Of a stretch of DNA of 64,000 bases, positions 7,594 to 43,615 are shown in pieces. The notes below the pieces were generated by a model, which had not been told where the DNA came from, searched no databases, and worked only from the letters and a program-made list of their open reading frames with translations. Position numbers and translations under genes: made by a program. Position 1 is the first letter of the stretch. Each line of letters opens with the position of its first letter. The stretch lies in NCBI RefSeq assembly GCF_001921205.1, contig NZ_MSIE01000049.1, positions 1 through 64,000 on the forward strand, written 5' to 3'. Source of the stretch: Actinophytocola xanthii. GTDB taxonomy: Bacteria; Actinomycetota; Actinomycetes; Mycobacteriales; Pseudonocardiaceae.

Positions 7594-7597
7594 GTCA

Positions 7598-10617: not shown

Positions 10618-10638
10618 CCCATACCGCGGCCGCGTGAC

Positions 10639-25847: not shown

Positions 25848-27410
25848 CTACTGCCGGTCCGGGAGGCTGAACGCGTAGAAGGTTCGGCTGCGGGTGCCGA
25901 TACCGGCGCGTTCGTAGCCGTTGCCCCAGTACACCGAGCCGTCCACGATCGCGGGGCCGGAGTTCGACGAGCCCTCGCCACGGGTCTCCCAGAGCACCTG
26001 GCCGGTCGCGGCGTCGATGGCGTACATGTAGCCGGCCAGGGAGCCCGCGTAGAGCACGCCGTTGGCGACGCTGACCGCGCCCTGGGCCAGGCCCTGGTGC
26101 GGTTCCCCGACGTGCCAGACGACCTCACCGGTGGCCGCGTCGAGTGCGGCGATGGAGCTGTAGTCGATCACCGTGCCGTCCGGCAGCTCGTACTCCTCCC
26201 TGCCGAAGTTGGTCTCCACCAGGTATACCCGCTCGCCGTCGGTGGCAGTGCCCCACTGAATCCCGCCGACCTCGGAGCCGGGCGCGAGGGCGGCGCTCCA
26301 CACGATCTCACCCGTCGTGGCGTCGACCATCCAGTAGATGCCGCTCTTCTGCCCGGCACCGACCAGCTTGCGCTGCTGACCGTCGGCCCCCGTGACGGTC
26401 AGCAGGTGCGCACCGTCGGCGAAGTCGTGGTCCGGGCCCGGGATCGGCGGGCAGTTGTTCGGTGGCGGACCGATGATGCAGCCGCCGTTCCACGTGTCGA
26501 ACGCGTCCTCCCCGGCGGTCCACCTGATGTCGCCGGTGGCCGCGTCCATCGCCACGATCGAGTTCAGGTGGTTGCCCGGCGAGCACTCGCTCGGCGTCCC
26601 GCCGTTCTCCTGGCAGTCCTCGACGTCGTTCGGCACGGTGTAGTTGTTGCCGGTGGTGATGTAGAGGGTGCCGGTGTCCGGGTCGATCGCCGGCGTGCTG
26701 CTCCAGATGGCGTTGCCGCTGTACCTGCCGTTCGTCGCGGGGTCCTCCGGGGACTCCGGGGTCGTGTAGGTCCGCCAGAGGATGTCGCCGGTGGCCGCGT
26801 CCACAGCGGTCATGCTGCCCCGGAACGTGCAGCAGTCGTAGTCGGGGTTGATCGCGGCGACCTCCTCGTCGGAGGACACGCCTTGGTAGAGGACCCCGTC
26901 GTACACCATCGGCGACTGGGTCAGGATGGCGGACGGGTGCTCGTCCATGGTCGTGGACCAGCGGAGATCCCCGTTCGCGGTGTCGATCGCCAGCAGCCGG
27001 GCCCCGCGCTGAGTTCCGATGTAGACGGTGTCGCCGACCACGGTCGGGCTGCTGCGCGACACCGCCTCGGCGATGCCGACGTAGTCAGGGATCGAACGCT
27101 GCCAGATCAGCGCGCCGGTCTGGGCGTCCACTTTGGAGAAGTAGCCACCCCAGTCAGGGAAGTAGACCGCGCCGTCGACCACCGCGGGCGTGGCGGAGAC
27201 GTCCCCTTGCGTGGACTGTGTCCACCTGGTGTCCAGGTCGGGCACCGTCGTCGTGGACAGGGTCCGCTCGACCGGGTTCCAGCGGGTGTTCGCGTGGTCG
27301 TATCCGCCCATCGACCAGTCGGCGTCACCCTGCGCCGCGACGGGAGCGCCCTGCACCGCGCCCACCACGGCGACCGCGATCAGCGCGAACGTAAGCCTCA
27401 CTGCACGCAT
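25848..27410 (-). CDS. Secreted PQQ-type eight-bladed beta-propeller (polyvinyl-alcohol dehydrogenase-like), 520 aa
   Basis: A signal peptide (cleavage near PVAAQ) precedes a PQQ-enzyme-repeat propeller. Blades carry GALIWQRS, GDLRWSTT, GDILWRTY, GDIRWTAG, GEIVWSAA, GEVVWHVG and GQVLWETR. A vicinal Cys pair occurs in DYDCCTF; other Cys lie in ECSPGNH and GGCIIGPPPNNCPPIP, as in secreted quinoprotein alcohol dehydrogenases. No cytochrome domain is attached. It probably oxidises an alcohol outside the membrane if PQQ is available; a purely structural propeller cannot be excluded. ATG 27410 follows GAGGTGGCAG. Confidence 0.87.
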   Translation of the reverse strand: MRAVRLTFALIAVAVVGAVQGAPVAAQGDADWSMGGYDHANTRWNPVERTLSTTTVPDLDTRWTQSTQGDVSATPAVVDGAVYFPDWGGYFSKVDAQTGALIWQRSIPDYVGIAEAVSRSSPTVVGDTVYIGTQRGARLLAIDTANGDLRWSTTMDEHPSAILTQSPMVYDGVLYQGVSSDEEVAAINPDYDCCTFRGSMTAVDAATGDILWRTYTTPESPEDPATNGRYSGNAIWSSTPAIDPDTGTLYITTGNNYTVPNDVEDCQENGGTPSECSPGNHLNSIVAMDAATGDIRWTAGEDAFDTWNGGCIIGPPPNNCPPIPGPDHDFADGAHLLTVTGADGQQRKLVGAGQKSGIYWMVDATTGEIVWSAALAPGSEVGGIQWGTATDGERVYLVETNFGREEYELPDGTVIDYSSIAALDAATGEVVWHVGEPHQGLAQGAVSVANGVLYAGSLAGYMYAIDAATGQVLWETRGEGSSNSGPAIVDGSVYWGNGYERAGIGTRSRTFYAFSLPDRQ

Positions 27411-27763
27411 ACCTGCCACCTCACGCAGAGCAACGGGACGACTACGCCGTAGTGTGCGGCGGTCGAACGAGCGTCGTCAACCGATTCCCTTTTCCGGAAC
27501 GGTCGCCAACGAAAACCGCGCCGAAAGCCGGAAAAGCCTGGTGGACGCGGCTGGGTCGGGTCCTTTCGTGATCAGCAGGTGGCTCGTTTTCGGGGAACTT
27601 TTCGCAACGACTCCGAAAGATCTCGCCCGCCACCGCCCCGCCGGCCCTCTCCTGCGCGAGTCGACCACGCGGCCACGCGATGAACGCGGCGATGCCGATT
27701 CGATGAAGACGGTGGCCAAGACTTGCTCCGGCAACACAGCCACCCTTCTCGAAGAGGAGAGAC
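27411..27763. other. Intergenic region between divergent genes
   Basis: No credible gene is seen in these 353 bp. It holds the upstream regions of the PQQ propeller (minus) and the Cys-rich secreted protein (plus). It is somewhat AT-richer around 27480-27640 (runs such as CCCTTTTCCGG and GTTTTCGGGGAACTTTTCG). I cannot assign promoter elements confidently. Confidence 0.4.
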
Positions 27764-28330
27764 ATGCGTCAAACGTTCAGACGCGCTGGGTTACTCGGGA
27801 TGGCCTTCCTGCTCGCGCTGGCGGGAACGGTGTTCGTGGCCGGTACGGCGTCGGCCGCGAAGTCGAGACAGGCGTTGGACACCGCGTCGGTCACGCAGGC
27901 CTGCGAGATTTCGGCCTGCGCCAAGGATGTGCAGAGCATCCCGGCCAACGCGGCGGTCGACACCTACTGCTCCCACCCCGGGGGCGGGTTCAACCTCACC
28001 TACACCAATCCCACCTTCGGGCGTGGCGGGTACATCCCCGTCACGAACTTCGCGAACAACACCCGGAACCCCGAGCAGTGTGGTGCCTTTTCCGGTTCCT
28101 TCGCGCGGACAAGGGTTGCGACCAACCTGTGGTCCTGTTCAGGCGGAGGATGCGTGAACTTCGGCAACGTCCTCCAGCGCGGTGAGCAGCTCCGGGCCTT
28201 CTGCCACCTTCCGCCGGGCCAACCCAACTCGTTGCTCGTCTACGTGCCACGCAACACGTTCGCGGGCTTCGTCCGCACCTCCGAGCTGGACATCAACCCC
28301 AGCGTCCCGAGCTGCAACCAGGGATTCTGA
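27764..28330 (+). CDS. Cys-rich secreted protein with SH3-like region, 188 aa
   Basis: The signal peptide (MRQTFRRAGLLGMAFLLALA, cleavage after SASAA) leads to a mature domain of about 155 residues with eight cysteines, suggesting four disulfides. The C-terminal part (VATNLWSCSGGGCVNFGNVLQRGEQLRAFCHL, then YVPRNTFAGFVRTSEL) resembles a bacterial SH3-like barrel. It could be a wall-binding or inhibitor-like protein. ATG 27764 follows GAGGAGAG. A strong hairpin closes the gene, separating it from the RiPP cluster. Confidence 0.8.
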   Translation: MRQTFRRAGLLGMAFLLALAGTVFVAGTASAAKSRQALDTASVTQACEISACAKDVQSIPANAAVDTYCSHPGGGFNLTYTNPTFGRGGYIPVTNFANNTRNPEQCGAFSGSFARTRVATNLWSCSGGGCVNFGNVLQRGEQLRAFCHLPPGQPNSLLVYVPRNTFAGFVRTSELDINPSVPSCNQGF

Positions 28331-28502: not shown

Positions 28503-29564
28503 ATGTCTGGTACCGCTGCCACTGTTTCCGGCGGGCCCACCGATATCGTGTGGGACATTACCTACGCCTGCCCGCTGCGGTGCACGCACTGCTATTCGGA
28601 GTCGGGACGGCGCCCGACGCGGCAGCTGACTCCCGCGGAGCTGCTGCGGGTCGCCGACGCGATGCTGTCGCTTCGCCCGTCGACGATCGTGCTCGCCGGT
28701 GGTGAGCCGCTCGTCGTCCGGGGGTTGTCCGACGTCGTCGACCGGATCACCGCCGCCGGTGTCGAGGTGCTGCTGTACACCAGCGGGTGGTCGCTATCGC
28801 CGACGATGATCGACGAGGTGGTGGCCAGGTGTGCCGCGGTGAGCGTCAGCCTCGACGGTGCCACGGCCGAGGTGCACGACGCGGTCCGCGGCCGCAGCGG
28901 CTCGTTCGACCGGGCCATGCGGTCCCTCACGATGCTGAACGACGCGGTGCGCGAACGCCGACGCGCCGGCGGGACGCCCTTCGAGTTCGGCATCGACGCG
29001 ACGATCGTGCGCAGCAGCTTCGACCAGGTCGCCTCGTTCTGCGAGGACATCGCCCCGCGGTTCAGCGAGCTCAGCTACGTCGCCCTCGGCCCGGCGATGC
29101 CGATCGGTCTCGGCAGCCGCGCCGTGTTCGTCGAGCACGAACTCCTCGACGACGAGCAGGTCGACCGGCTGACCGCCCCCGAACAGCTCGCCTACCTCAG
29201 GTCGCTGGCGCCGCCGCCGGTCCAGGTCTCCGTGACGGACAACCGCCTGCTGTCCTACCGTCCGGATCTCCTCGCCCGGGGCCGCATCCCCGCGATGCAG
29301 GTCGAGCCCGACGGCCTGGTGCGGGCGATGGCGATCTACGAGGGCACGGTCGGGAGCCTGCTCACCGACCCGCCTGCGGAGCTCTGGCGCCGCTCGGTCG
29401 ACCGATGGCGTGACCCGTTCGTGGTCGACACCCTCACCCCGGTGCGCACGATGCGGGAGTGGGCCGAGGCCACCAGGCGCCTGGACTACCGCTTCGGCAC
29501 CGACGACGACCGGGCCCGCATCGACAACCGGCCCGTCTTCCTTTCCCTGTCCCCGTCCCGGTGA
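28503..29564 (+). CDS. Radical SAM peptide-modifying enzyme 1 (MftC-like, degenerate SPASM), 353 aa
   Basis: The radical SAM signature CX3CX2C is CPLRCTHC, in DITYACPLRCTHCYSESG. The surroundings resemble the peptide-modifying family that includes MftC of mycofactocin. SAM-binding GGE-type motif: VLAGGEPLV. The C-terminal region has the SPASM-like pattern VEPDGLVRAMAIYEGTVGSL, but every auxiliary-cluster cysteine is missing (Ala/Met instead). It is about 60% identical by eye to the enzyme at 33216. ATG 28503 after GAGGGGA matches the paralogue length better than GTG 28458. It lies 46 bp before the small precursor gene. The reaction is unknown; Cys-Calpha thioether, epimerisation or C-C crosslinking are candidates. 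Confidence 0.9.
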   Translation: MSGTAATVSGGPTDIVWDITYACPLRCTHCYSESGRRPTRQLTPAELLRVADAMLSLRPSTIVLAGGEPLVVRGLSDVVDRITAAGVEVLLYTSGWSLSPTMIDEVVARCAAVSVSLDGATAEVHDAVRGRSGSFDRAMRSLTMLNDAVRERRRAGGTPFEFGIDATIVRSSFDQVASFCEDIAPRFSELSYVALGPAMPIGLGSRAVFVEHELLDDEQVDRLTAPEQLAYLRSLAPPPVQVSVTDNRLLSYRPDLLARGRIPAMQVEPDGLVRAMAIYEGTVGSLLTDPPAELWRRSVDRWRDPFVVDTLTPVRTMREWAEATRRLDYRFGTDDDRARIDNRPVFLSLSPSR

Positions 29565-29610
29565 GCGATCGCCGGGAACATCACGGCTACCGAGGAGGGA
29601 GGTGACACCG

Positions 29611-29694
29611 ATGGCGTACGACATCAACGATCTGCAGCTCCTGGAGGAGGCCGAGGCCGACCTCGAGCTGTTCCCGTGCAAGTGCACCTGCTGA
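29611..29694 (+). CDS. Putative RiPP precursor peptide with CKCTC core, 27 aa
   Basis: ATG 29611 is preceded by a very strong ribosome site, GGAGGGAGGTGA (29594-29605), sharing GGGAGGTGAC with the first lanthipeptide precursor. The acidic leader begins MAYDINDLQLLEEAEADLEL; its DLQLLEE resembles the class III/IV leader recognition helix. The peptide ends FPCKCTC: three Cys and a single Thr, no Ser. It sits between a radical SAM gene and an ABC exporter, and is followed by a 14-bp hairpin. This is far shorter than known class IV precursors (about 50 aa). The product could carry at most one (methyl)lanthionine; the remaining Cys residues are plausible radical SAM targets. Confidence 0.8.
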   Translation: MAYDINDLQLLEEAEADLELFPCKCTC

Positions 29695-29709
29695 TCACCC
29701 GCTGGTCCC

Positions 29710-29741
29710 GGTCCGTCAGCCCGGCGGCGGGTTGGCGGACC
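29710..29741 (+). terminator. 14-bp intercistronic hairpin after the precursor gene
   Basis: Position 29710 pairs with 29741 inward to 29723 with 29728: GGTCCGTCAGCCCG against CGGGTTGGCGGACC, fourteen consecutive pairs including two G-U, with a four-base loop. It lies 15 bp after the precursor stop and 26 bp before the exporter ATG. Probable attenuator or RNase barrier raising precursor mRNA over the exporter. Confidence 0.65.
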
Positions 29742-29767
29742 GGACGGCGTCCACCGAAGGAGAGATC

Positions 29768-31444
29768 ATGCCGACCGAACCCGCGCGGGCGCCCGTCGCG
29801 TCCACGGCCAAGCTGTGTGCGACGGTGGTCGTGGCCGGGTCGGCGCTGGTGCTCCCGGTCCTGTCGGCGCGCGCGGTCGACGTGATCCTCGCCGGCGGCA
29901 CGCCCGGTCCCGCGCTGCTCGCCTTCGCCACCGTGCTGGTCGTGGCGACGCTCGCCGAGATGTGCGGCGAGGTGACCGGCGTCCTCGCCGAGACCGCGGT
30001 GCTCGGCCGGCTGCGGCACCGCCTGCTGGGGCACGTCTTCCGCCTCGGCGTGCCGGGTTCACGGCGCTACGGCGTCGGTGACCTGCTGACCCGGTTCACC
30101 GCCAACGCCGCCGCCATGGCCAGGGCCACGCCCTACCGCATCGAGGCGGCGGTCGGGATCGCGGCGGCCGTGGCCGGCTGGCTCGCACTGTGCGTGATCG
30201 ACTGGCGGGCCGGCGTGGCCCTCGCCGCGGGGACCCTGCCGCTGGTGTTGCTGATCCGAACCCGGCTTCGCACGTCGACCAGCCGGTTCGCCGACTACCT
30301 CGACCGGCTGGCCAGCATCGCCGCACGGCTCACCGACGCGCTCACGGGGCGCCGGACGATCCGCGCGGCAGGCACGCTGGACCGCGAGGTGCGGCGGGTG
30401 CTGGCGCCGCTGCCCGCACTCGCCGCCGCCGGGCTCGCCACCTGGGAGGTCCGCCGGGCCGTCTCCTGGCAGCTCGGCCTCGCCCAGCACGGGCTCCGGA
30501 TCCTGGTGCTCGTCATCGCCGGTCTGGGTGTCGCGACCGGCCGGCTCTCCCCCGGCGGTTTCCTCGCCGCGTCCCTGTACCTCACTGTCGCGCTCGGGTT
30601 CGTCCAGCAGCTCGACACCCTGCTCTTCCTCGCCGACGCCCGCGCCGGCGCGGACCGGGTCCACCAACTTCTCCGGGAGCAGCCTCGGTTCCGCGCCGGT
30701 GGCACCGGGACCCCGGCGCCGGGGCCCGGGTCGCTCGCCTTCCGCGGTGTGCGGGTCCGGATCGACGGGCGGACCGTCCTGGACGGGATCGACCTCGAGG
30801 TGCCGGCCGGCACGGTGCTGGCCGTGGTCGGCCGCTCCGGGAGCGGGAAGAGCACGCTCGGCCTGCTGGCCGGTCGACTCCTCGATCCCGACGACGGCGA
30901 GGTGTCGCTGGACGAGGTGCCGTTGCACACCATGGCGCCGGCCGAGGTGCGCACCGCCGTGGGCTACGCCTTCGAAAGGCCGGTCCTCCTCGGCGACACT
31001 CTCCGCGAGGCGATCGCCTTCGGCCGGCCGGTGCCCGACCGGTCCGCGCCGGAGCGCGCCTGCCGGCTGGCCCAGGCCGAGGACTTCGTTCGCCGGTTGC
31101 CGCACGGCCTCGACACGCTGCTGGCCGAGGCGCCGTTGTCGGGTGGAGAGTTGCAGCGGGTGGGGTTGGCGCGTGCGGTGGTCACACCACCTCGGGTGCT
31201 TGTGCTGGACGACGCGACGTCCGGCCTGGACACGGTTACCGAGGCCCGACTCACGACGGCCTTCACCGAGGCGCTGGCCGGTCGCACGCGGTTGGTCGTC
31301 GCGCACCGCGTGGCGACCGCGGCGCGTGCCGACCTGGTCGCCTGGCTCGACCGCGGCCGGGTGCGCGCGGTCGCGCCCCATTCGGTGCTGTGGACGACCG
31401 AACCCGACTACCGGGCCGTGTTCAGCGCCGGGGAACTGCCGTGA
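29768..31444 (+). CDS. ABC exporter half-transporter 1 (type IV fold), 558 aa
   Basis: An N-terminal membrane domain of six helices and a C-terminal nucleotide-binding domain. Walker A is GRSGSGKST, the signature is LSGGELQ, Walker B is VLVLDDATSGLD and the H-loop VVAHR. In Walker B the usual catalytic Glu is Asp, so this half probably forms the degenerate ATP site of a heterodimer. There is no C39 leader-peptidase domain. Expected role: export of the modified CKCTC peptide with the partner at 31441. ATG 29768 follows AAGGAGAG. The end overlaps the partner start (GTGA). Confidence 0.92.
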   Translation: MPTEPARAPVASTAKLCATVVVAGSALVLPVLSARAVDVILAGGTPGPALLAFATVLVVATLAEMCGEVTGVLAETAVLGRLRHRLLGHVFRLGVPGSRRYGVGDLLTRFTANAAAMARATPYRIEAAVGIAAAVAGWLALCVIDWRAGVALAAGTLPLVLLIRTRLRTSTSRFADYLDRLASIAARLTDALTGRRTIRAAGTLDREVRRVLAPLPALAAAGLATWEVRRAVSWQLGLAQHGLRILVLVIAGLGVATGRLSPGGFLAASLYLTVALGFVQQLDTLLFLADARAGADRVHQLLREQPRFRAGGTGTPAPGPGSLAFRGVRVRIDGRTVLDGIDLEVPAGTVLAVVGRSGSGKSTLGLLAGRLLDPDDGEVSLDEVPLHTMAPAEVRTAVGYAFERPVLLGDTLREAIAFGRPVPDRSAPERACRLAQAEDFVRRLPHGLDTLLAEAPLSGGELQRVGLARAVVTPPRVLVLDDATSGLDTVTEARLTTAFTEALAGRTRLVVAHRVATAARADLVAWLDRGRVRAVAPHSVLWTTEPDYRAVFSAGELP

Positions 31445-33192
31445 CCGGCCGGGGGTGGCGCGCCGGCGCCGGGTACCGGCTGCTGGTCTCGGCGCTGCGG
31501 CGACAACGGCGCGGACTCGCATGGATCCTGCTGTGGTCGGTGCTGGAGTCGGTGCCGCCGTTGCTGTCCGGGCTGCTGGTGTCGGTGGCCATCGACGGCT
31601 TCCTCGCCGGGGACGTGGCGGGCGCGCTCGGCGCGCTCGGGTTGTTCCTCGGCGCCGCCGTGGTGGGGGCCCTCGCCACGAGACAGGTGTTTCCGTGGCT
31701 GGCCCGCGTGGTGGAGGCGGTCCGCGACTCGTTCGTCGTCGCGACCGTGACCGGGGCGCTCACCGACGCCGTCCAGTCATCCGGACCCTCGGACACTGCC
31801 GGCGTCGCCCGGCTGACCGAACACGTCCAGTCGGTTCGCGAGGTGCTGTTCGCCGTCCTGCGCATTGTCCGGCAGATCGCGTTCACCGTGGTGGCCGCGT
31901 TGATCGGGCTGTGCCTGCTGGCCCCGGTGGTCGCGCTGGGCACCGCGCTGGCGGTGGGCCTCGCGATGGCGGTGTTCCTCGTCCGCATGCCGAAGCTGGC
32001 CGCGACCCAGAAGACGGTCCTGCTGGCCGAGGAGAAGGTCGCCCGGCGCGCGGGTGCGGTGTTCGGCGGGATCCGGGACGTGGTCGCGTGCGGAGGGGAG
32101 CGCCAGGCCGCCGGCGATGTCGGTCGGGCGGTCAACGACCACGTACGACTGTCCAGAAGGCTGGCGGTGGCGACCTCGTCCCGGATGGTGGTCGTCTTCC
32201 TCGGCGGTCAGCTTCCGCTGCTGGCCCTGCTGGCGGCCGCACCGTGGCTGCTCGTCGGCGAGCACCTCAGCGTCGGCGAGCTCGTCGGGGCGGTCACCTA
32301 CCTCACCGCGGGGCTCGAACCGGCACTGCGCAGGCTGCTGGAGGTGCTCGCGACCTGGGGACTGGAGATGGGGGTGAGCGTCGCCCGGCTCGGCGAGGGG
32401 TTCGCGCCGGGGGACGGGGCACGGCCGGCGACCGGTGGCGTGCCCGCGCCCGGCCGGATGAGCCTCACCGCGGAAGCTCTCACGTTCGCCTACTCCCCGC
32501 ACGCCGCACCGGTGTGCCGCGACCTCGGCTTCCGGTTGGCCGAGGGCGAGCACCTCGCGGTCGTCGGCCCGAGCGGCACCGGCAAGTCCACGCTCGTGAG
32601 CCTGCTCGCCGGTCTCCTGCCACCCACGCGGGGTCGGGTACTGCTCGGCGACACCCCGCTCGGCGACATCGCGGACGGCGAACTGCGGCGGGTGATCGGC
32701 CTCATCCCGCAGGAGGCCTACGTCTTCGCGGGATCGCTGCGGGAGAACATCGGCTACCTGGCGCCGGGTGCGGGCGCCGGAGAGATCTCGGCGGCCGCGT
32801 CCGCCGTGGGTCTCGACGAGCTCGTCGCCCGGCTCGGCGGCCTGGACGTCACGCTCGGCCCCGAGGGTGCCGAGCTGTCCCACGGCGAGGCACAACTCGT
32901 CGCACTCGCCCGGGTCTACCTGTCGCCGGCCAGGATCGTGATCCTGGACGAGGCGACGTCCGCGCTCACGCCGGACGAGGAGGCGACCGCGGAGGCCGCG
33001 TTCACCGCCCGCGGCGGGACGCTCGTCGTGGTCGCCCACCGGATCAGCTCCGCCGTACGCGCCGGCCGTGTGCTCCTGCTCGACGGTGACACGGCGGTGA
33101 TCGGCACGCACGACGAGCTGGTCCAGCTCTCGTCCACCTACGCGGACCTGGTCGGCCACTGGCGGCACGACGCCATGTCGGCCGCCACCTGA
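31441..33192 (+). CDS. ABC exporter half-transporter 2, 583 aa
   Basis: Six-helix membrane domain plus a nucleotide-binding domain with Walker A GPSGTGKST, Q-loop region IPQEAYVFAGSLRENIGY, signature LSHGE (not LSGGQ), Walker B IVILDEATSAL with catalytic Glu, and H-loop VVAHR. With the upstream half it gives an asymmetric heterodimer: one site has the canonical signature of half 1 and one is degenerate. GTG 31441 overlaps the first half stop. It is followed 23 bp later by the second radical SAM gene in the same transcript. Confidence 0.92.
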   Translation: MTGRGWRAGAGYRLLVSALRRQRRGLAWILLWSVLESVPPLLSGLLVSVAIDGFLAGDVAGALGALGLFLGAAVVGALATRQVFPWLARVVEAVRDSFVVATVTGALTDAVQSSGPSDTAGVARLTEHVQSVREVLFAVLRIVRQIAFTVVAALIGLCLLAPVVALGTALAVGLAMAVFLVRMPKLAATQKTVLLAEEKVARRAGAVFGGIRDVVACGGERQAAGDVGRAVNDHVRLSRRLAVATSSRMVVVFLGGQLPLLALLAAAPWLLVGEHLSVGELVGAVTYLTAGLEPALRRLLEVLATWGLEMGVSVARLGEGFAPGDGARPATGGVPAPGRMSLTAEALTFAYSPHAAPVCRDLGFRLAEGEHLAVVGPSGTGKSTLVSLLAGLLPPTRGRVLLGDTPLGDIADGELRRVIGLIPQEAYVFAGSLRENIGYLAPGAGAGEISAAASAVGLDELVARLGGLDVTLGPEGAELSHGEAQLVALARVYLSPARIVILDEATSALTPDEEATAEAAFTARGGTLVVVAHRISSAVRAGRVLLLDGDTAVIGTHDELVQLSSTYADLVGHWRHDAMSAAT

Positions 33193-33215
33193 GTACTCAT
33201 CCGGAGGGAATCTCC

Positions 33216-34262
33216 ATGACGACGCCCGACCGCCCCGACTACATCGTCTGGGACATCACCTACGCGTGCCCGTTGCGGTGCGAGCACTGCTACTCCGAGT
33301 CGGGGCGACGACCGACCCGGCAGCTCGACCACGACGAGATCCTGCGGGTCGCGGACCGCATCATCGAGCTCGCACCGGCGGCGGTCGGCATGGCCGGCGG
33401 CGAAGCACTGGTGGTGCGGGGAGTCTTCGACATCATCGAGAGGATCATGGACGCAGGCATCGAAGTCCTCCTCTACACCGGCGGGTGGCCACTGCGGCCG
33501 CACATGATGGCCGACCTCCTGCGGCTACGGCCCCGGGTGCACGTGAGCGTGGACGGCGCGACCGCCGCCGTGCACGACCGCATCCGTGGCCGAGCCGGTT
33601 CGTTCGACCGGGCGATGGCCGCGCTGCGCCTGCTGGACGAGGCCAGCGAGGCGGCACGGCGGGATGGCGGCGAGCCGCTCGAGTTCGGCCTGGACGCCAC
33701 GATCGTCCGCAGCAGCTACGACCAGCTCGACCTGTTCTGCACCGACATCGCCCCGCGGTTCCCGGAGCTGGGCTTCCTCGCGCTCAGCGCGGTCGTGCCC
33801 AGCGGGCTGGCCAACCGGGCCGGGTTCGTCGAGCACGAGGTGCTGAGCGACGAGCAGACCGCCTCGTTCACGACCGCCGCGCTGCGCGATCGGCTGCGGG
33901 CACTGACCCCAGCAGACGTGGAACTGTCCACATCGGATAACAAGGCGATGATGATGCACCCCGACCAGGTCGCCAACGGGAGCGCGTTCCGGGGAATCGC
34001 GGTCGAGCCGGACGGCGCGGTCCGCGCGATGTGCATTTACGAGGGCGTGGTGGGCAACCTGCTCGCGGACGAGCCGGCGGAGCTGTGGCAACGCGCGCGG
34101 GCGCGGTGGAGCGACCCGTTCGTGGCCGACACCCTCAGACCGGTTCGGAGCATGCGACAGTGGGCCGAGGCGGTCCGCCGGATCGACTACCACTTCGGCA
34201 CCGACTCCGACCGCGCCCGGATCGACCGGCGACCCGCGTTCGCCGCGCCCGTGTCCGTGTGA
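33216..34262 (+). CDS. Radical SAM peptide-modifying enzyme 2 (paralogue, degenerate SPASM), 348 aa
   Basis: The start YIVWDITYACPLRCEHCYSE gives the CX3CX2C cluster site; GMAGGEALVV is the SAM-binding motif. The C-terminal region VEPDGAVRAMCIYEGVVGNL keeps the SPASM-like spacing but only one of its cysteines. It is co-linear with the enzyme at 28503 (shared ESGRRPTRQL, EFGxDATIVRSS, LYTxGWxL, FGTDxDRARID), so this is a gene duplication. Two copies suggest two different positions or two reactions on the same small peptide. ATG 33216 follows CGGAGGGAA. The next gene begins 7 bp after its stop. Confidence 0.9.
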   Translation: MTTPDRPDYIVWDITYACPLRCEHCYSESGRRPTRQLDHDEILRVADRIIELAPAAVGMAGGEALVVRGVFDIIERIMDAGIEVLLYTGGWPLRPHMMADLLRLRPRVHVSVDGATAAVHDRIRGRAGSFDRAMAALRLLDEASEAARRDGGEPLEFGLDATIVRSSYDQLDLFCTDIAPRFPELGFLALSAVVPSGLANRAGFVEHEVLSDEQTASFTTAALRDRLRALTPADVELSTSDNKAMMMHPDQVANGSAFRGIAVEPDGAVRAMCIYEGVVGNLLADEPAELWQRARARWSDPFVADTLRPVRSMRQWAEAVRRIDYHFGTDSDRARIDRRPAFAAPVSV

Positions 34263-34269
34263 GGCGAGC

Positions 34270-36942
34270 ATGAGCGTCGACGACCTCCTGCTGACCGACT
34301 GCGCGGCCGCGGCGCTGGCCCGTGCGGACCTGCCGGGCTGGCGGCTCAACCTGGGCGACTTCTGGTGTTACGTCGAACCGGCCGCCGGCCGAACCCGTGC
34401 GCAGGGCTGGAAGCTCCACGTCTCGGCCACCCCGCTGTCCGCGCCGGCGGTGCTCGCCCGGTCGGCCGAGGTGCTGCTGGCGCACGGATGTCCGTTCAAG
34501 TTCGCCGCCGGACTCGCCCAGGTGGCGGAACTGGGACACCGCCAGGCGGACCGGGCCGGTGGCGGCAAGTTCCTCACCGCCTACCCCGACCGCGGCCCCT
34601 ACGAGTTCCGCGAGCTGGCCGAGGCACTGCACCGGGCGACCGAAGGGCTGCCGGGGCCCGGCGTGCTCTCCGACCGCCGGTACCGGCCGGGCAGCCTGGT
34701 GCACTACCGGTTCGGCGCGTTCGGCGGCGTCCGAATGCTCGGCAACGACGGGGTGTACGAGTCGATGCTGGTACATCCCGACGGCAGCCTCGTGCAGGAC
34801 CGGCGCACGGCGTGGTTCTCGCCGCCGTCATGGGCGCCACCGGACCCGTTCGGGCACACCCGCCCCGCCGCCACCCGCCGGTCCGTGCTGCTGAACGGCC
34901 GATATCTCGTTCGCGAGGTGATCCGGCACGCGTTCACCGGTGGAGTGTTCCGTGCCGTCGACCAGGAGACCGGCGCCGAGGTCATCGTCAAGCAGGCGCG
35001 TCCGCATGCCGGCGCCACCCTCGCCGGCACCGACGCCCTCGACCAACGGCGGCACGAGGCGGCGATGCTGGAGCTGTTCGCGGAGTCCGGGTACACGCCC
35101 CGGCTGCTTGACGTCTTCGAGCAGCAGGGTGAGGTGATGCTGGTGCTGGAGTCGGTGCCGGGAACCACGCTGCGGCAGTGGGTACGGGACCGGGGCGGGC
35201 GAGACGGCGTCCCCTGGCGGGAGACCGCGCTCGGGCTGGTAAACCTGTTGACGCTGGTGCACGGCAGAGGGCTGGTGGTCCGGGACTTCACCCCGAACAA
35301 CATCATGGTCACCCCGGAGGGGGGCGTGCGGCTGGTCGATCTCGAACTGCTCGCGGAGCCGGGCACGTGCGTGGTGCGGGGCCACACACCCGGGTATGGC
35401 GCTCCGGAGCAGGTTCGGGCCGCCTCACCTGGTCCTGCCCCGTCGCCGGCAGCGGATCTGTTCAGCCTCGGTGCGACCTTGTTCTACCTGGCCAGCGGCG
35501 CGGACCCGGTGCTCTGCGCGGACGAGCCGCCGGCGCGGGCGATCGCGGAACGAGTCGGGAGCTGGCTGGGCCGCCTCGAGCGGGACAGCGTCGTCGCGCG
35601 CCGGCTCGCGCCGGTCGTCGTCGCCCTGATGCACGAGGAGCCGGACCGGCGCCCGGACCTGGCGGCCGTCCGCGACCATCTCACCCGTGCCGAACCGGCG
35701 GAACCGCTGCCGGTCAGCGGCTCACCGCCCCGGGCGATCGACGGCGACGCACTGGACCGGCTGATCACCGACGGCTTCGGCCACCTGCTCGACACGATGC
35801 GACCCGACGACTCCTCCGGACGGCTGTGGCCCTCCGGGGACTTCGGTGCCACGACCGACCCGCTGAACGTGCAGCACGGCGCCGCGGGGGTGCTCGGCGC
35901 ACTGATCGCCGGCTGCCGCGCCGGTCTCGACCTGACCGACGCCGTCGCCGGGACCGCGGCGTGGATCGCCCGCCGGGCGCCGCGGGAGCCCCGCGTCCTC
36001 CCCGGGCTCCATTTCGGACGGTCCGGAACCGCCTGGGCCCTGCTGGATGCCGCGACGATCCTCGGCGACGAGGAGCTCGCGCGTACCGCCAGGGACCTCG
36101 CCAGCCGGGTACCGGTTCGCTGGCCCAACCCCGACGTCTGCCACGGGATGGCCGGTGCCGGGCTCACCCAGCTCCGCTTCTGGGAGGTCACCGGCGACGA
36201 CGAGTTCCTGGCCAGGGCGCGAACCGTGGCCGAGAACCTGGCCGCCGCCGTCGGGCGGCACGACGACGGCGCGGTCCACTGGCCCATCCCCAGGGACTTC
36301 GAGTCCACCATGGCGGGCATGTCCCACCACGGGTTCGCCCACGGGACCGCCGGTGTCGGCACGTTCCTGCTCGCGATGGCCGAGCTCACCGACGAAAGCG
36401 CCTACCTCGACCTGGCCACGGCCGCCGCGGACACGCTGAGCGCGGCGGTACAGCGCGACCGCGGCGCGGCCTACTGGCCGAGCAGGGTGGGTGGCGGCCC
36501 ACCGAAGACCAACTGGTGCAGTGGCTCCTCCGGCGTGGGGACGTTCCTGGCGCGGATGTGGCGCCACAGCCACGACGACCGGTACGGCGAGCTGGCCGGC
36601 GCCGCAGGGCTGGCGGTTCGGCGATCGAGGTGGCACGCCGGGCTTTCCCAGTGCCATGGCCTCGCCGGTGACGGTGACTTCCTGCTGGACCTGGCCGAGA
36701 TCACCGGGGACGACCGTTACCGGGACTGGGCGGCCGAGCTCGCGGTGAGCTTCAGCGTGCGGGCCGCGTTGCGCCACGGACGCATGGTCGTGCCGGACGA
36801 GACCGGGATCGCGGTGGTCGCCGACTTCGGGACCGGCCTCAGCGGCGCATTGACATTCCTGCTGCGGCTGCGCGGTGGTGGCCTCCGTCCATGGCTGCCC
36901 GAGGTCCTGGCGAGCGACCGGGCGCCGGCGGCGTCCACGTAG
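34270..36942 (+). CDS. lanL: Class IV-like lanthipeptide synthetase (LanL type), 890 aa
   Basis: Three domains: a lyase (about 1-200; GWKLHVSAT near 47), a kinase (about 215-480; EVIVKQAR, catalytic VRDFTPNNIMV near 337, VDLE, GYGAPEQV) and a LanC cyclase (about 520-890). The cyclase has zinc ligands typical of class I, II and IV enzymes: Cys750 (NWCSGSSG) and Cys795-His796 (QCHGLAGDG), plus the FAHGTAGVG histidine. It should phosphorylate and eliminate Ser/Thr, then add Cys. The synthetase at 1378 lacks these ligands, so the window holds both types. The only local substrate found has a single Thr. Its 3-prime end overlaps the antisense regulator gene. Confidence 0.9.
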   Translation: MSVDDLLLTDCAAAALARADLPGWRLNLGDFWCYVEPAAGRTRAQGWKLHVSATPLSAPAVLARSAEVLLAHGCPFKFAAGLAQVAELGHRQADRAGGGKFLTAYPDRGPYEFRELAEALHRATEGLPGPGVLSDRRYRPGSLVHYRFGAFGGVRMLGNDGVYESMLVHPDGSLVQDRRTAWFSPPSWAPPDPFGHTRPAATRRSVLLNGRYLVREVIRHAFTGGVFRAVDQETGAEVIVKQARPHAGATLAGTDALDQRRHEAAMLELFAESGYTPRLLDVFEQQGEVMLVLESVPGTTLRQWVRDRGGRDGVPWRETALGLVNLLTLVHGRGLVVRDFTPNNIMVTPEGGVRLVDLELLAEPGTCVVRGHTPGYGAPEQVRAASPGPAPSPAADLFSLGATLFYLASGADPVLCADEPPARAIAERVGSWLGRLERDSVVARRLAPVVVALMHEEPDRRPDLAAVRDHLTRAEPAEPLPVSGSPPRAIDGDALDRLITDGFGHLLDTMRPDDSSGRLWPSGDFGATTDPLNVQHGAAGVLGALIAGCRAGLDLTDAVAGTAAWIARRAPREPRVLPGLHFGRSGTAWALLDAATILGDEELARTARDLASRVPVRWPNPDVCHGMAGAGLTQLRFWEVTGDDEFLARARTVAENLAAAVGRHDDGAVHWPIPRDFESTMAGMSHHGFAHGTAGVGTFLLAMAELTDESAYLDLATAAADTLSAAVQRDRGAAYWPSRVGGGPPKTNWCSGSSGVGTFLARMWRHSHDDRYGELAGAAGLAVRRSRWHAGLSQCHGLAGDGDFLLDLAEITGDDRYRDWAAELAVSFSVRAALRHGRMVVPDETGIAVVADFGTGLSGALTFLLRLRGGGLRPWLPEVLASDRAPAAST

Positions 36943-37603
36943 GCGCGCGCCCGGCCGGGGCGTTCGGGTCGCGGCCGAGACCGGCCTCCCTGGCCAGCAC
37001 GATCGCCTCGGCCCGGCTGCTCACCCGCAGCTTCGCGAAGATCGTGGAGATGTGGTTGCTGATCGTCTTGCCGGCGAGGTGGAGCTGCTGGGAGATCGCC
37101 GAGTTGGACGCACCCGCCGCCACCAGGTCCAGCACCTGCCGTTCCCGGGCGGTGAGGTGGGTGAACGTGGTTGCCGAACCCGACCCGGCGGGCCGGGTCA
37201 GCAGGCGGCCGAGCCGCGTGTGAATCCGTGAGCCGAACACCGTGCTGCCGGCGGCGACGGATCGGACGGCTCGGACGATCTCGGTGTCGTCCGCGTTCTT
37301 CAGCAGGTAGCCGCGGGCGCCGGCGTGCACCGCCGCGCACAGGGTGGCGTCCAGGTCCTGCCCGGTGAACACGAGCACGGCCACGCCGGGTGCTGCCTCG
37401 CGGAGCTCCTCGATGCCGGCGAACCCAGCCACCTGCGGGTCCAGCACCAGGACATCGGGCTGGCGGGCGACGGTTTCCCGTACGACGGCGGCGCCATCGT
37501 CGATCTCGCCGACCACCTCGATGTCGGGCTCGGCCGCCAGGACCGTGCGCAAGCCGTAGCGCAGGATCGGTTGGTCATCACACAACAGCACGGACAACGG
37601 CAT
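36839..37603 (-). CDS. Orphan NarL/LuxR-family response regulator, 254 aa
   Basis: The receiver domain has the acidic pair CDDQ and phosphoacceptor Asp in VLVLDPQVAG (Pro and Gln follow, where family members usually have a DxxMP-like loop), with Lys in YLLKNAD. The HTH has LTARERQVLDLVAAGASNSAIS and KTISNHISTIFAKLRVSS. A roughly 45-residue Pro/Ala-rich tail follows, whose coding sequence runs antisense through the last 104 bp of the synthetase gene. No kinase gene is adjacent. ATG 37603 follows GGGGGA. Convergent to the RiPP operon and divergent from the SARP gene, it is a probable cluster regulator. Confidence 0.88.
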   Translation of the reverse strand: MPLSVLLCDDQPILRYGLRTVLAAEPDIEVVGEIDDGAAVVRETVARQPDVLVLDPQVAGFAGIEELREAAPGVAVLVFTGQDLDATLCAAVHAGARGYLLKNADDTEIVRAVRSVAAGSTVFGSRIHTRLGRLLTRPAGSGSATTFTHLTARERQVLDLVAAGASNSAISQQLHLAGKTISNHISTIFAKLRVSSRAEAIVLAREAGLGRDPNAPAGRAPTWTPPAPGRSPGPRAAMDGGHHRAAAAGMSMRR

Positions 37604-37895
37604 GTGGTTCCCCCAGTACCTTCTTCGTGCTTCCTGTCAACGCCTGCCGGGTGGCGTCGCGGGAGGCACCCAGCACGGTCCCCACGCACGCTGCGGCCTG
37701 GCAACCGCGCGAGGACACCCCCGATCGTCCGACCGGCCCCTCCCCCGGCACACGACAGGCCCCCATACTGGCTACGGGGCCTGGACAGGTCGCTGGAGCA
37801 CACGCTGGACCAGACCCTTCCCGGAGGCGGGACAGCGTCTTCCGGGTGCGGTACCAGGAGCGCTAGGTTGGCCCAGTCCTCAGGAGGGGGCGTCC

Positions 37896-40655
37896 ATGAC
37901 GGGCAGGCACGGGACAGGCCAGCTGCGTTTCGAGGTACTCGGTCCCCTGCAGGTCCTCCGCGACGGTACTCCCGTGGAGTTCGGTCGTCCGCAGCAGCGG
38001 GTCGTGCTCGCCGCGCTCCTCCTGAACGCCAACCGCCCACTCGGCAGGGACCGGTTCGTGCATGCGGTCTGGGGTCCGGCGGTCCCCGAGTACGCGGTCA
38101 ACCTGCTCCAGAAGCACGTCTCCGGGCTGCGCCGCCTGTTGGCGCCGCCCGGTGCCGACCTCGCCAGGTACGACAGGGTGACGTGGACCGACGCCGGATA
38201 CGTGTGCGCCGTGCGGCCGGGCGAACTGGACCTGGACGACTTCGACCGGGAGGTCGAGCGTGCCGCGGGCGCACGGGCCCGCGGCGACTCGCGAACAGCG
38301 TCCCGGGCGTTGCGTGACGCGCTGGCACTGTGGCGTGGGCCGTTGTGCGCGGGGCTCACCGCTCCGTTCCTGGACGCGTACCGGGACCAGCTCGCCGAGC
38401 GGCACGTCGGTGTGCTGGAGGATCGGATCGAGCTCGAGCTGACCTTCGGCGACCGCGCGGACCTGGTGCCCGAACTGCGGGCGCTGGTCGCCGAACACCC
38501 CCTGCGGGAGCGGCTGCACGAGTTGCTCATGCTGGCCCTCTACCGGTCGCAGCGCCAGGCCGAGGCGCTGGCCGCCTACCACGACCTGCGCCGGCACCTC
38601 CTGGAGGAACTGGGCATCGAGCCCACCGACCGGCTGCAGCGGCTCCAACGGCGGTTGTTGTCCGCCGACCCCGCGCTCATTCCCGCCGCCGCGGCCGAAC
38701 GGCCCGCCATGCCGGAGCCCGACGGCCGGCCCCGCATGGCGGCCCCGGCCGTACCCGCCCAGCTGCCGCACCGGATCCGGCACTTCGTCGGTCGCCGGGA
38801 CGAGCTGGCCCGGCTGCGCGACCTCACCCGCGGCGACCGGCGGGCCTCGCTCGTCACGATCACTGGCACGGCCGGGGTCGGCAAGACGACCCTTGCCCTG
38901 CATCAGGCCCACCAGGTGCGCGGCCAGTTTCCCGACGGACAGCTCTACGTGAACCTGCGCGGCTTCGACGGTAGCGGGACCCAAGTTGAGGCGGGCGACG
39001 CGCTCATGGGGTTCCTCGACGCGCTGGGGGTGCCGTCCCACCAGGTGCCGACACAGCTGGACCTGCGGGCCGCGCTGTTCCGCAGCGTGCTGCACGACCG
39101 CCGGGTGTTGCTGGTGCTCGACAACGCCGCGACCGCCGAACAGGTGCGACCGCTGGTGCCCGCGTCCGACGGGTGTCTGGTGATCGTCACAAGCCGCAAC
39201 TCGCTCATCGGGCTGGTGGCCGTCGACGGGGCCGAAAGGGTGCACCTCGACCTGTTCGACGCGACGGAGGCACGCCAGCTGCTGACCACCCGCCTCGGCG
39301 CCGACCGGTTGACCGCCGAGCCGGACGCCGTCGAGGAGATGCTCATCTCGTGCGCCGGCCTTCCCCTGGCGCTCGGCATCGTCGCCGCGCGGGCGGCCTG
39401 CCACGCAAGCTTCCCACTCGCGGTGCTCGCCGGGCAGCTGCCGGCGCACCAGGGTGAGCTCGACGCGTTCCGCGGCGACGACGAGTCCACCGACCTGCGT
39501 GCCGTCATCTCCTGGTCCTACCGGGTACTGGCACCCGACCCGGCCCGGCTGTTCCGCCTCATGGGCGTCCACCCGGGACCGAGCATCACGGTCGCCGCGG
39601 CGGCGAGCCTGCTGGGCGAGAGCCTTTCCAGTGCCGCCGCGGCGTTGACCGCGCTTGCCACAGCCAACCTGGTCGACGAGCGCAGTCCCGGCCGCTACGG
39701 CTTCCACGACCTCCTGCGCGCGTTCGCCAGCGACGAGGCACAGGTTGCGGAGTCCGAAGCAGACCGACGGTCGGCGCTGCATCGAGTGCTGTTCCACTAC
39801 GTGCGAACCGCCCAGTGCGCCGACCTGCTCATCAACCCGAGCCGTGAGCCGCTGGTTCCGGTGCCGCCGGTACCGGGTGCCGTTGCGGTGGACCACGAGG
39901 ACGAGACGTCAGCGCTCACCTGGTTCAGCGCCGAGCTGCCGGTACTACTGGCCATTGTCGACCTGCCACGACGAGTCCGGTCCGATCCGGACACCAGCCT
40001 CCTGCTCTGGGGGCTCGAGACGTTCCTGGATCGTCGGGGTTACTGGCACGAACGCCAGTATGACGACGGATATGCCGGCTACCAACAGGTTCTGGCGTAC
40101 GTCGGTCAGTCGGGTGACCGAGGCGGAGAGGCGCGCACCCACATCCACCTGGCCTGGGTGTTGGAGCGGCAGGGCAAGCACCGGCCCGCGCTGGCGCACG
40201 CCCAGCAGGCCCTGGCGCTGTTCACCGCGATGGACAACAAGATCGGCCTCGCGGAGTCGCTCAACGCGGTCGGCTGGTGCCACATCCAGCTTGGAGAGCC
40301 CGAGCCAGCCGTCGACCACTGCATGCGGGCGTTGCGCCTGCACCGGGTGACCGGCCACCGCGACGGCGAAGCGCACACGCTGGACAGTCTGGGCTACGCA
40401 TACCAAAGGCTCGGCCAGCACGACAAGGCGGTGCTGTACTACGGCCGCGCCGTGGATCTCTGGCGAGAGCTGGATGTCCCGTGTTACGAGGCGGACACAC
40501 TGACCCGCATCGGAGACGCGCACCACGCCCGCGGGAGCCTCGGCTCAGCACAGGACGCGTGGCGCCAGGCCCTGTTGTTGTTCGAGCGGTTCGGTCACCC
40601 GGCCGCCGCCGAGATCAAGTCAAAAATGGACGCTGAGACGAGTGGAGGTACGTAG
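37896..40655 (+). CDS. SARP/AfsR-family regulator (BTAD, NB-ARC, TPR), 919 aa
   Basis: The N-terminal OmpR-like winged helix (LRFEVLGPLQVLRDGTPVEFGRPQQRVVLAALL) precedes a bacterial transcriptional activation domain (to about 255). An NB-ARC/AP-ATPase follows, with P-loop GTAGVGKTTLAL and kinase 2 VLLVLDNA. Tetratricopeptide repeats fill the C-terminal 160 residues. AfsR-like activators switch on secondary-metabolite operons. ATG 37896 follows AGGAGGGG at good spacing. Its TAG abuts the ATG of the 109-residue precursor-like protein (TAGATG), so regulator and RiPP module are co-translated. Confidence 0.93.
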   Translation: MTGRHGTGQLRFEVLGPLQVLRDGTPVEFGRPQQRVVLAALLLNANRPLGRDRFVHAVWGPAVPEYAVNLLQKHVSGLRRLLAPPGADLARYDRVTWTDAGYVCAVRPGELDLDDFDREVERAAGARARGDSRTASRALRDALALWRGPLCAGLTAPFLDAYRDQLAERHVGVLEDRIELELTFGDRADLVPELRALVAEHPLRERLHELLMLALYRSQRQAEALAAYHDLRRHLLEELGIEPTDRLQRLQRRLLSADPALIPAAAAERPAMPEPDGRPRMAAPAVPAQLPHRIRHFVGRRDELARLRDLTRGDRRASLVTITGTAGVGKTTLALHQAHQVRGQFPDGQLYVNLRGFDGSGTQVEAGDALMGFLDALGVPSHQVPTQLDLRAALFRSVLHDRRVLLVLDNAATAEQVRPLVPASDGCLVIVTSRNSLIGLVAVDGAERVHLDLFDATEARQLLTTRLGADRLTAEPDAVEEMLISCAGLPLALGIVAARAACHASFPLAVLAGQLPAHQGELDAFRGDDESTDLRAVISWSYRVLAPDPARLFRLMGVHPGPSITVAAAASLLGESLSSAAAALTALATANLVDERSPGRYGFHDLLRAFASDEAQVAESEADRRSALHRVLFHYVRTAQCADLLINPSREPLVPVPPVPGAVAVDHEDETSALTWFSAELPVLLAIVDLPRRVRSDPDTSLLLWGLETFLDRRGYWHERQYDDGYAGYQQVLAYVGQSGDRGGEARTHIHLAWVLERQGKHRPALAHAQQALALFTAMDNKIGLAESLNAVGWCHIQLGEPEPAVDHCMRALRLHRVTGHRDGEAHTLDSLGYAYQRLGQHDKAVLYYGRAVDLWRELDVPCYEADTLTRIGDAHHARGSLGSAQDAWRQALLLFERFGHPAAAEIKSKMDAETSGGT

Positions 40656-40985: not shown

Positions 40986-40999
40986 TCGGACCGCTGGCT

Positions 41000-42850: not shown

Positions 42851-42930
42851 CCCGACGGTCTGCCCTGTGTTGCGGGCGAAAAGTCAAGTACGGTCGGATG
42901 GGCACCGTCGGCGAACCGGGGGTAATCGGC

Positions 42931-43530: not shown

Positions 43531-43615
43531 GTCCCGACAGCACGCGTGACGACGGAGACGACCGCGCTTTCGCCGTGCGGGGAGTACTGAACGCGATGCC
43601 GTAAGGTCTGCCGGC

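What the first reader, a model, noticed from the sequence alone, without database searches (positions are those of the whole stretch)
28503..36942. RiPP cluster joining two radical SAM enzymes with a class IV-like lanthipeptide synthetase
Order: radical SAM, 27-aa peptide, ABC exporter pair, radical SAM, LanL-like synthetase, all one direction with 4-bp overlaps or short gaps. The two radical SAM genes are duplicates bracketing the peptide and exporter. Lanthipeptide loci normally use one dehydratase/cyclase plus tailoring enzymes; I know of no described class built on two MftC-like radical SAM proteins and a LanL-type enzyme acting on a CxCxC core. The product could combine a (methyl)lanthionine with radical-made links. 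That the enzymes share one substrate is inference from gene order.
Basis: partly seen in the sequence, partly recalled or inferred. Interest (0 to 1): 0.93.

Follow-up and report, generated by a model that had tools for sequence, protein, structure and literature searches.

The report
Radical-SAM-tailored class IV lanthipeptide gene cluster
An actinobacterium carries a small gene cluster in which a ring-forming lanthipeptide enzyme is paired with two copies of an unstudied radical enzyme, and related clusters suggest that the radical enzyme acts on a two-residue mark, an aromatic residue followed by proline, at the start of the peptide.

Summary
In detail: rSAM1, a 27-aa peptide (29611-29694), two ABC exporters, rSAM2 and a LanL lie on one strand, 28503-36942. 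LanL scores 1060 bits against NCBIfam's class IV model (cut-off 650). The same order occurs in three other named strains, and in 58 of 80 named loci found through the rSAM a LanL/LanKC synthetase is nearby, so this is a recurring system. The rSAM is not MftC-like: only CX3CX2C is invariant, with no SPASM cluster cysteines. The CxCxC core is not the shared feature. Precursors beside the rSAM share an aromatic residue plus Pro, usually plus Cys, at the start of the core: among class IV-like loci 27 of 27 with the rSAM and 0 of 27 without; among class III-like loci 25 of 25 and 4 of 27. The loci are related by descent, and a tree-controlled test has only 3 supported pairs (p 0.25). Most likely LanL makes one Cys23-Thr26 methyllanthionine and the rSAMs alter the adjacent Phe-Pro(-Cys). 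The radical chemistry is open: auxiliary clusters needed by known crosslinking rSAMs are absent, and the cysteine used by known epimerases is not conserved. New variant of a known kind.

The parts
28503..29564 (+). rSAM1, 353 aa, radical SAM enzyme with CX3CX2C and GGEP, no SPASM cysteines
   Evidence: sister clade to rSAM2, SH-aLRT 96
29611..29694 (+). precursor peptide MAYDINDLQLLEEAEADLELFPCKCTC; leader with DLQLLE, core motif Phe21-Pro22-Cys23-Lys-Cys-Thr26-Cys27 (leader/core border inferred)
   Evidence: NF038157 15.7 bits, cut-off 19; related peptides in L024/L042, L052, L055, L067
29768..31444 (+). ABC1, exporter half-transporter (membrane + ATPase); no peptidase domain in the Pfam scan
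31441..33192 (+). ABC2, exporter half-transporter
33216..34262 (+). rSAM2, 348 aa, paralogue of rSAM1; AlphaFold model pLDDT 95.3; its clade bears Cys273, absent from rSAM1
34270..36942 (+). LanL, class IV lanthionine synthetase: RamC_N, kinase (RDFTPNN), LanC-like domain with WC750 and C795-H796
36839..37603 (-). LuxR-type response regulator, possible cluster regulator (60% identical protein at the same end of the L042/L024 cluster)
37602..40655 (+). SARP/AfsR-type regulator (BTAD, NB-ARC, TPR domains; true start uncertain); 69% identical protein beside the L042/L024 cluster

Best explanation
This is a class IV lanthipeptide cluster with an added radical tailoring step. LanL phosphorylates and eliminates the only hydroxyl residue of the core (Thr26) and closes one methyllanthionine, most likely to Cys23, three residues before it. 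Separately, the rSAM enzymes recognise the aromatic-Pro step (Phe21-Pro22, followed by Cys23) at the leader/core border and modify it or the adjoining Cys. rSAM1 and rSAM2 arose by duplication and act on the same peptide, one after the other or as a pair. ABC1/ABC2 export the product, and a protease encoded elsewhere removes the leader. Shown by sequence: the genes, their order, the recurrence, the association of motif and rSAM, the lack of conserved auxiliary-cluster cysteines. Inferred: the ring, the substrate, the site of action, export and leader removal. The radical reaction is open; redox-neutral chemistry (alpha-carbon epimerisation or another rearrangement at the aromatic-Pro-Cys step) fits the single-cluster anatomy somewhat better than an oxidative crosslink.
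For: Class IV synthetase by curated model. Same gene order in L052, L055, L067. 58 of 80 named rSAM loci hold a synthetase match. One caller used for loci with and without the rSAM, loci sharing a precursor with an earlier one dropped: [WYFH]P at positions 9-46 in 27 of 27 class IV-like rSAM+ loci and 0 of 27 rSAM- (1 of 27 anywhere); [WYFH]PC 23 of 27 and 0 of 27; class III-like [WYFH]PC 25 of 25 and 4 of 27. rSAM- relatives of one leader type read LRDCNSTC where rSAM+ read LYPCQITC, so CxxTC goes with LanL and aromatic-Pro with the rSAM. Core WPCRITI (L025) has one Cys and one Thr three apart; [ST] three after the Cys in 33 of 34 distinct class IV-like PC precursors. Only CX3CX2C is invariant in 65 lanthionine-linked rSAMs.
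Against: Phylogenetic control is thin: 8 changes of rSAM presence on the synthetase tree, 3 supported independent pairs, none the other way, sign test p 0.25. 22 of 80 rSAM loci have no synthetase match in the fetched DNA; 9 of them form an outgroup, the others lie elsewhere in the tree, three on contigs under 12 kb. Two precursors in multi-precursor clusters lack the motif (LRSCWVTC in L078, LMACTVTC in L101). Three rSAM+ loci gave no candidate precursor (L058, L099, L111). [WYFH]PC occurs deep in the core of one rSAM- precursor family (L214-L219, L242). In class III-like PC precursors Ser/Thr three after the Cys holds in only 19 of 30. The one-ring topology rests on residue spacing alone.
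Confidence: 0.6

Rival explanations
1. The rSAM is a peptide epimerase: it makes a D-residue at or next to the aromatic-Pro-Cys step, which helps LanL close a ring with the Cys before the Ser/Thr, as OspD does for OspM in landornamide. A mass-neutral change.
For: Proteusin epimerases hold only the radical SAM cluster (PMC8326336, passages). In landornamide the rings are Cys2-Ser7 and Cys10-Thr14, Cys first, and OspM depends on D-residues made by OspD (PMC10028609, passages); here the spacing is also Cys first ([ST] three after Cys in 33 of 34 distinct class IV-like PC precursors). The epimerase EpeE is among the structural matches, Z 17.8, below 31 other entries.
Against: Known epimerases use a critical cysteine, strictly conserved among PoyD homologues. 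Here the best candidates are C175 in 53 of 65 and C161 in 37 of 65, and L066 has no cysteine outside CX3CX2C though its precursor keeps YPC. The rSAM2 model shows only helices after residue 281, so no C-terminal RRE as in proteusin epimerases. rSAM- LanL clusters also have Cys-first CxxTC cores, so a D-residue would not be needed for that ring.
Confidence: 0.3
2. The rSAM makes a crosslink from the aromatic side chain to the residue two on (Cys, or Pro/Glu/Asp in a few), a three-residue cyclophane or thioether, giving a lanthipeptide-cyclophane hybrid (-2 Da).
For: First residues W 41, Y 13, H 8, F 6 of 68 distinct motif-bearing precursors. Three-residue cyclophane enzymes link Trp or Phe at i to i+2 (PMC11002830, passages), and a title in its reference list extends this to Tyr and His. 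SuiB Z 23.2, SkfB Z 24.9.
Against: Auxiliary clusters are described as essential for the modification by such rSAMs (PMC8326336, passages); none is likely here, as no further cysteine is invariant. Cys23 is also the best LanL ring partner.
Confidence: 0.25
3. The radical made at the aromatic-Pro step adds to the Dha/Dhb made by LanL/LanKC, a redox-neutral carbon-carbon link, which would explain why this rSAM family lives with kinase-lyase synthetases.
For: Frequent partnership with class III and IV synthetases, lack of conserved auxiliary-cluster cysteines.
Against: Core WPCRITI has only one Thr and one Cys, so the link would displace the methyllanthionine; no precedent in the papers I saw.
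Confidence: 0.1
4. The rSAMs act on another molecule and the aromatic-Pro motif is only a shared inheritance of the precursor lineages.
For: Only three supported independent comparisons on the synthetase tree; 22 of 80 rSAM loci without a synthetase match in range.
Against: The peptide lies between rSAM1 and ABC1; the motif recurs with several leader types and with both class III and class IV synthetases.
Confidence: 0.1

Closest known systems
ALQxL family class IV lanthipeptides (NCBIfam NF038157) with LanL synthetases (NF038150)
   Same: Synthetase; leader (relatives L025, L040, L054, L074 pass the cut-off, the window peptide falls just below); CxxTC-type spacing also in rSAM-less members.
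   Different: Of 51 loci fetched for an above-cut-off LanL, 2 show the rSAM (L224, L225; the window, G125 and G162 clusters not among them). With the rSAM the residues before the first Cys become aromatic-Pro.
Landornamide pathway (OspD rSAM epimerase + OspM lanthionine synthetase)
   Same: rSAM and lanthionine synthetase on one peptide, Cys before Ser/Thr (PMC10028609, passages).
   Different: Proteusin leader, class II-type synthetase (recalled), epimerase family with C-terminal RRE and critical Cys (PMC8326336, passages); none of these seen here.
Thuricin CD TrnC/TrnD
   Same: Two rSAM enzymes of one cluster acting together as a complex (PMC12093266, abstract).
   Different: Make thioether crosslinks, with auxiliary clusters (abstract and section headings); no lanthionine synthetase (recalled).
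Triceptides (XncB, OscB, MscB)
   Same: Aromatic residue at motif position 1 (PMC11002830, passages).
   Different: SPASM-containing rSAMs; no lanthionine synthetase mentioned in the passages.
SkfB (PDB 6efn)
   Same: Highest structural match, Z 24.9, rmsd 3.4, 276 residues aligned at 20% identity.
   Different: SkfB is a sactisynthase with RRE and auxiliary cluster (recalled).

Membership tests
Class IV lanthionine synthetase (LanL) | Curated whole-protein model above cut-off | tested here: met
   NF038150 1060.5 bits, cut-off 650; class III model 444.7, cut-off 575
Class IV lanthionine synthetase (LanL) | Lyase, kinase and LanC domains in one protein, with zinc-site Cys and Cys-His (ligand role recalled) | tested here: met
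   RamC_N, Pkinase, LANC_like; WC750, C795-H796, RDFTPNN by motif
Class IV lanthipeptide | Product contains (methyl)lanthionine | not testable with these tools
   no product data
ALQxL class IV lanthipeptide precursor (NF038157) | Leader model above cut-off | tested here: inconclusive
   window peptide 15.7 bits, cut-off 19: below it; four of seven relatives scanned pass
Mycofactocin maturase MftC | TIGR03962 above cut-off | tested here: not met
   99.8 (rSAM1) and 85.5 (rSAM2) bits, cut-off 265
Radical SAM/SPASM peptide maturases (sacti-, ranthi-, triceptide enzymes) | Auxiliary-cluster cysteines in the C-terminal domain | tested here: not met
   In 94 family members only C18, C22, C25 are invariant; in 65 lanthionine-linked ones the next is C175, 53 of 65
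Proteusin-type (PoyD/OspD) peptide epimerases | Only the radical SAM cluster | tested here: met
   by sequence: CX3CX2C alone invariant; cluster content not measured
Proteusin-type (PoyD/OspD) peptide epimerases | Strictly conserved extra cysteine as H-donor | tested here: not met
   No extra cysteine common to the 65; L066 has none
Proteusin-type (PoyD/OspD) peptide epimerases | C-terminal RRE | tested here: not met
   Model of rSAM2: helices only after residue 281; rSAM1 not modelled
Proteusin-type (PoyD/OspD) peptide epimerases | Match to a curated epimerase model or fold | tested here: inconclusive
   Only the best 25 of 51 and 42 NCBIfam matches were printed; no proteusin epimerase among the 50 structures shown
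Three-residue cyclophane (triceptide) substrates | Aromatic residue at i, crosslink to i+2 | tested here: inconclusive
   Aromatic at i by selection; Cys at i+2 in 64 of 68 distinct motif-bearing precursors; crosslink not testable

The most novel reading that the evidence does not exclude
A family of radical SAM enzymes without auxiliary cluster, RRE or conserved donor cysteine performs a reaction not yet known for such enzymes (aromatic-to-i+2 crosslink or radical addition to a dehydro-residue) on an aromatic-Pro-Cys step, producing hybrid lanthipeptides with class III or class IV synthetases across actinobacteria. In this window a duplicated pair of these enzymes acts on a seven-residue core.
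Probability: 0.35. Interest if true: 0.85.

Novelty: new variant of a known kind. Interest (0 to 1): 0.72.

Why it matters
It ties an uncharacterised radical enzyme family to a short substrate mark, so its reaction can be tested with peptides as small as WPCRITI behind their leader. It would show what a radical SAM enzyme without auxiliary-cluster cysteines or an evident leader-binding domain can do to a peptide, and it adds a tailoring step to class III and IV lanthipeptides. A 2020 survey stated that no secondary modification had been reported for class IV (PMC7268733, passages).

Tried and rejected
Considered and rejected: MftC-like function; sactisynthase or other SPASM enzyme; the neighbouring B12-rSAM gene (41000-42850) as part of the system, since among the loci only L033 and L104 show a B12-rSAM match and the ORF before it (40656) has one match; the upstream secreted protein 27764-28330 and the gene at 25848-27419 likewise (one match each). 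Those single matches were not listed by locus. A PoyD-specific NCBIfam model was not seen, but only the best 25 matches of 51 (rSAM1) and 42 (rSAM2) were printed. Fourteen rSAM loci without a synthetase match, of 32 such loci (duplicates included), were read for a simpler system: L075 keeps a YPC precursor; in the others I saw no convincing precursor. The model's coordinates were not in the script box, so distances of C175 or C161 to the SAM site could not be measured. Counting cautions: hold some genomes twice (L024 = L042, L101 = L224); one search drops loci with no candidate (III+ 1 of 31, III- 10 of 40, IV+ 2 of 32, IV- 1 of 29) and loci sharing a precursor string with an earlier one (5, 3, 3, 1). 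'Class III-like/IV-like' means that the N-terminal-domain match to the window LanL is under/over 150 bits; some synthetases above NCBIfam's class IV cut-off fall in 'III-like'. Controls came from genome-search hits for NF038150, so class III controls are those that this class IV model also finds; they were fetched with about 5 kb or 8 kb of flank, so 'without rSAM' means none in that stretch. The whole-genome rSAM searches cover the family and class draws but not the phylum draw. Motif positions 9-46 were chosen; 'anywhere' counts are given beside them. Searches used different callers; one search used one for both groups.
Full report
What is there. Window 28503-36942 holds rSAM1, a 27-residue peptide, two ABC half-exporters, rSAM2 and a LanL synthetase on the + strand. 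rSAM1 and rSAM2 share 59% identity. LanL is class IV by NCBIfam (1060.5 bits, cut-off 650), with RamC_N, kinase and LanC-like domains and the WC and CH motifs of the zinc site (role recalled); its best match among solved structures by sequence is 8car (262 bits). The peptide has a DLQLLE leader and ends FPCKCTC. In frame it reaches 15.7 bits against 'ALQxL family class IV lanthipeptide' (cut-off 19), and four of seven relatives scanned pass that cut-off.

Recurrence. A scan of one genome for each of 84,980 species with an alignment of the two rSAMs confirmed 97 relatives, of which the best 80 were kept. In 58 of these 80 the fetched DNA also encodes a match to the N-terminal domain of the window LanL, median rSAM-synthetase gap 688 bp. 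Other relatives pair the same rSAM with one class III-like synthetase or with two in tandem. In draws of 394 genomes of the class, the window's own included, 5 had the rSAM at E<=1e-60 and 21 a LanL above cut-off. Of 51 loci fetched for an above-cut-off LanL (the window, G125 and G162 clusters not among them), 2 show the rSAM. So the rSAM is the exception among LanL clusters.

The mark. Precursors next to these rSAMs have an aromatic residue and Pro, nearly always followed by Cys, at the start of the core: LFPC, LYPC, LWPC, AHPC, QWPC. Of 68 distinct motif-bearing precursors, 41 have W, 13 Y, 8 H, 6 F; 64 have Cys next, the others P, P, E and D. I ran one precursor caller on synthetase loci with and without the rSAM. 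With loci sharing a precursor dropped, class IV-like loci have [WYFH]P at positions 9-46 in 27 of 27 with the rSAM and 0 of 27 without (1 of 27 anywhere); [WYFH]PC in 23 of 27 and 0 of 27. Class III-like loci have [WYFH]PC in 25 of 25 and 4 of 27, and [WYFH]P at positions 9-46 in 25 of 25 and 4 of 27 (8 of 27 anywhere). Precursors of one leader type make the point: without rSAM, MELDINALEMLPATEETQLRDCNSTC...; with rSAM, MELDVKALDMLPASEESELYPCQITC.... CxxTC is in both, so it belongs to LanL; aromatic-Pro goes with the rSAM. Limits: these loci are related by descent. On a tree of 118 synthetases the rSAM changes 8 times, but only 3 independent pairs are well supported; the motif goes the same way in 2.8 of 3 on average and never the other way, and the sign test cannot reach significance (p 0.25). 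Two precursors in multi-precursor clusters lack the mark (L078, L101), three rSAM+ loci gave no candidate (L058, L099, L111), and one rSAM-less precursor family has WPC or FPC deep in its core (L214-L219, L242). Of the 22 rSAM loci without a synthetase match, 9 form an outgroup and the rest lie elsewhere in the tree.

The enzyme. In 94 family members only the three cysteines of CX3CX2C are invariant. In the 65 next to lanthionine synthetases the next most common are C175 (53 of 65) and C161 (37 of 65); four lack both, and one of these (L066) has no further cysteine though its precursor keeps YPC. So an auxiliary cluster and a universal donor cysteine are unlikely. The AlphaFold model of rSAM2 is confident (pLDDT 95.3, pTM 0.92) and shows only helices after residue 281, so no C-terminal RRE. 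Structure comparison places it among peptide rSAMs and viperin: SkfB Z 24.9 (rmsd 3.4, 276 aligned), viperins about 23, SuiB 23.2, EpeE 17.8; a shared fold shows no function. A VEPDGxVRAM..YEGTVGN stretch looks to me like a SPASM region that has lost its cysteine (reading, with the SPASM pattern recalled). rSAM1 and rSAM2 form sister clades (SH-aLRT 96, quick tree); the rSAM2 clade was found only in the four two-rSAM clusters and bears Cys273.

How it most likely works. LanL dehydrates Thr26, the only Ser/Thr of the core, and adds Cys23. Ring closure with the adjacent Cys25 or Cys27 is unlikely on steric grounds (inference), and [ST] stands three after the Cys in 33 of 34 distinct class IV-like PC precursors, though in only 19 of 30 class III-like ones. 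The seven-residue core WPCRITI (L025) has just that Cys and Thr. The rSAMs act on Phe-Pro(-Cys). Two precedents bear on the reaction. In landornamide an rSAM epimerase prepares a peptide for Cys-first lanthionine rings (PMC10028609, passages), and proteusin epimerases hold a single cluster, but they also have a strictly conserved cysteine and an RRE (PMC8326336, passages), not seen here. Cyclophane enzymes link an aromatic residue at i to i+2 (PMC11002830, passages), but auxiliary clusters are described as essential for such crosslinking. I lean to redox-neutral chemistry and leave the product open. The two rSAMs may work as a pair, as TrnC and TrnD do (PMC12093266, abstract). Noursin shows that a class III synthetase alone can add a His-to-Dhb link (PMC10206099, passages), so extra crosslinks in the HPC group need not come from the rSAM.

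What is known. Walker et al. 2020 name radical SAM among enzymes present in lanthipeptide clusters in one sentence, and say that no secondary modification had been reported for class IV (PMC7268733, passages). Passages of PMC9576775 report class IV products but no rSAM-linked ones. Searches of the open-licence library listed no paper that by title or abstract opening describes this rSAM-LanL/LanKC family (one search matched 98,571 papers on loose terms and listed 12); one possibly relevant 2015 survey, recalled, is not held, and most subscription papers are absent. Verdict: real, recurrent, a new variant of class III/IV lanthipeptide pathways, with an unusually clean substrate hypothesis.

Noticed in passing
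window 1165-3975: A second, ordinary-looking class III lanthipeptide pair near the window start: precursor MNHILDLQALDDSSETHPEAPSVFSSASAGLCISCLSLTVCG and a LanKC-like synthetase, without the rSAM in the stretch fetched.
   Followed up: partly
G000:C153, about 40881-45764 (L036): The same genome holds a third copy of this rSAM (47% identical to rSAM2) beside LanKC-like matches and a precursor MIEILELQELEDDSVALWPCNTSSTASGRLES.
   Followed up: partly
window 40656-42850: A RiPP-type B12 radical SAM C-methyltransferase (TIGR03975, 626 bits, cut-off 282) directly after a 109-aa ORF with no family match, possibly its precursor: a separate RiPP locus next door.
   Followed up: no
L025 8750-9081: Three precursors in a row with cores WPCRITI, WPCQVTIET and WPCRITI, very short for lanthipeptides (recalled).
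   Followed up: partly
L214-L219, L242: rSAM-less LanL relatives with a nearly invariant precursor ending GPQACVNTCKRTVCSS[WF]PCCPSIV in two genera of the window's family and one genome of another family; such conservation hints at a conserved role rather than an antibiotic.
   Followed up: no
L061, L062, L063, L070, L073, L077, L090, L091, L093-L096, L098, L100, L106: Clusters with two class III-like synthetase matches in tandem after one rSAM and one-Cys, Ser-rich cores such as LWPCANSSHSSLGMA.
   Followed up: no
L107-L110, L112-L116: An outgroup of the rSAM (37-41% identical), five of nine in Microvirga, with no lanthionine synthetase match in the fetched DNA; partner unknown.
   Followed up: no
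L035 (= L086, Actinosynnema sp. ALI-1.44), 6086-12514: An rSAM of this family without a synthetase match lies near an MNIO enzyme (PF05114, 278 bits), a glycosyltransferase and a 29-aa peptide MKKMKKVVVRKTGSVRLTSPCNTYGALAF with no family match: possibly a different RiPP that uses the same rSAM.
   Followed up: partly
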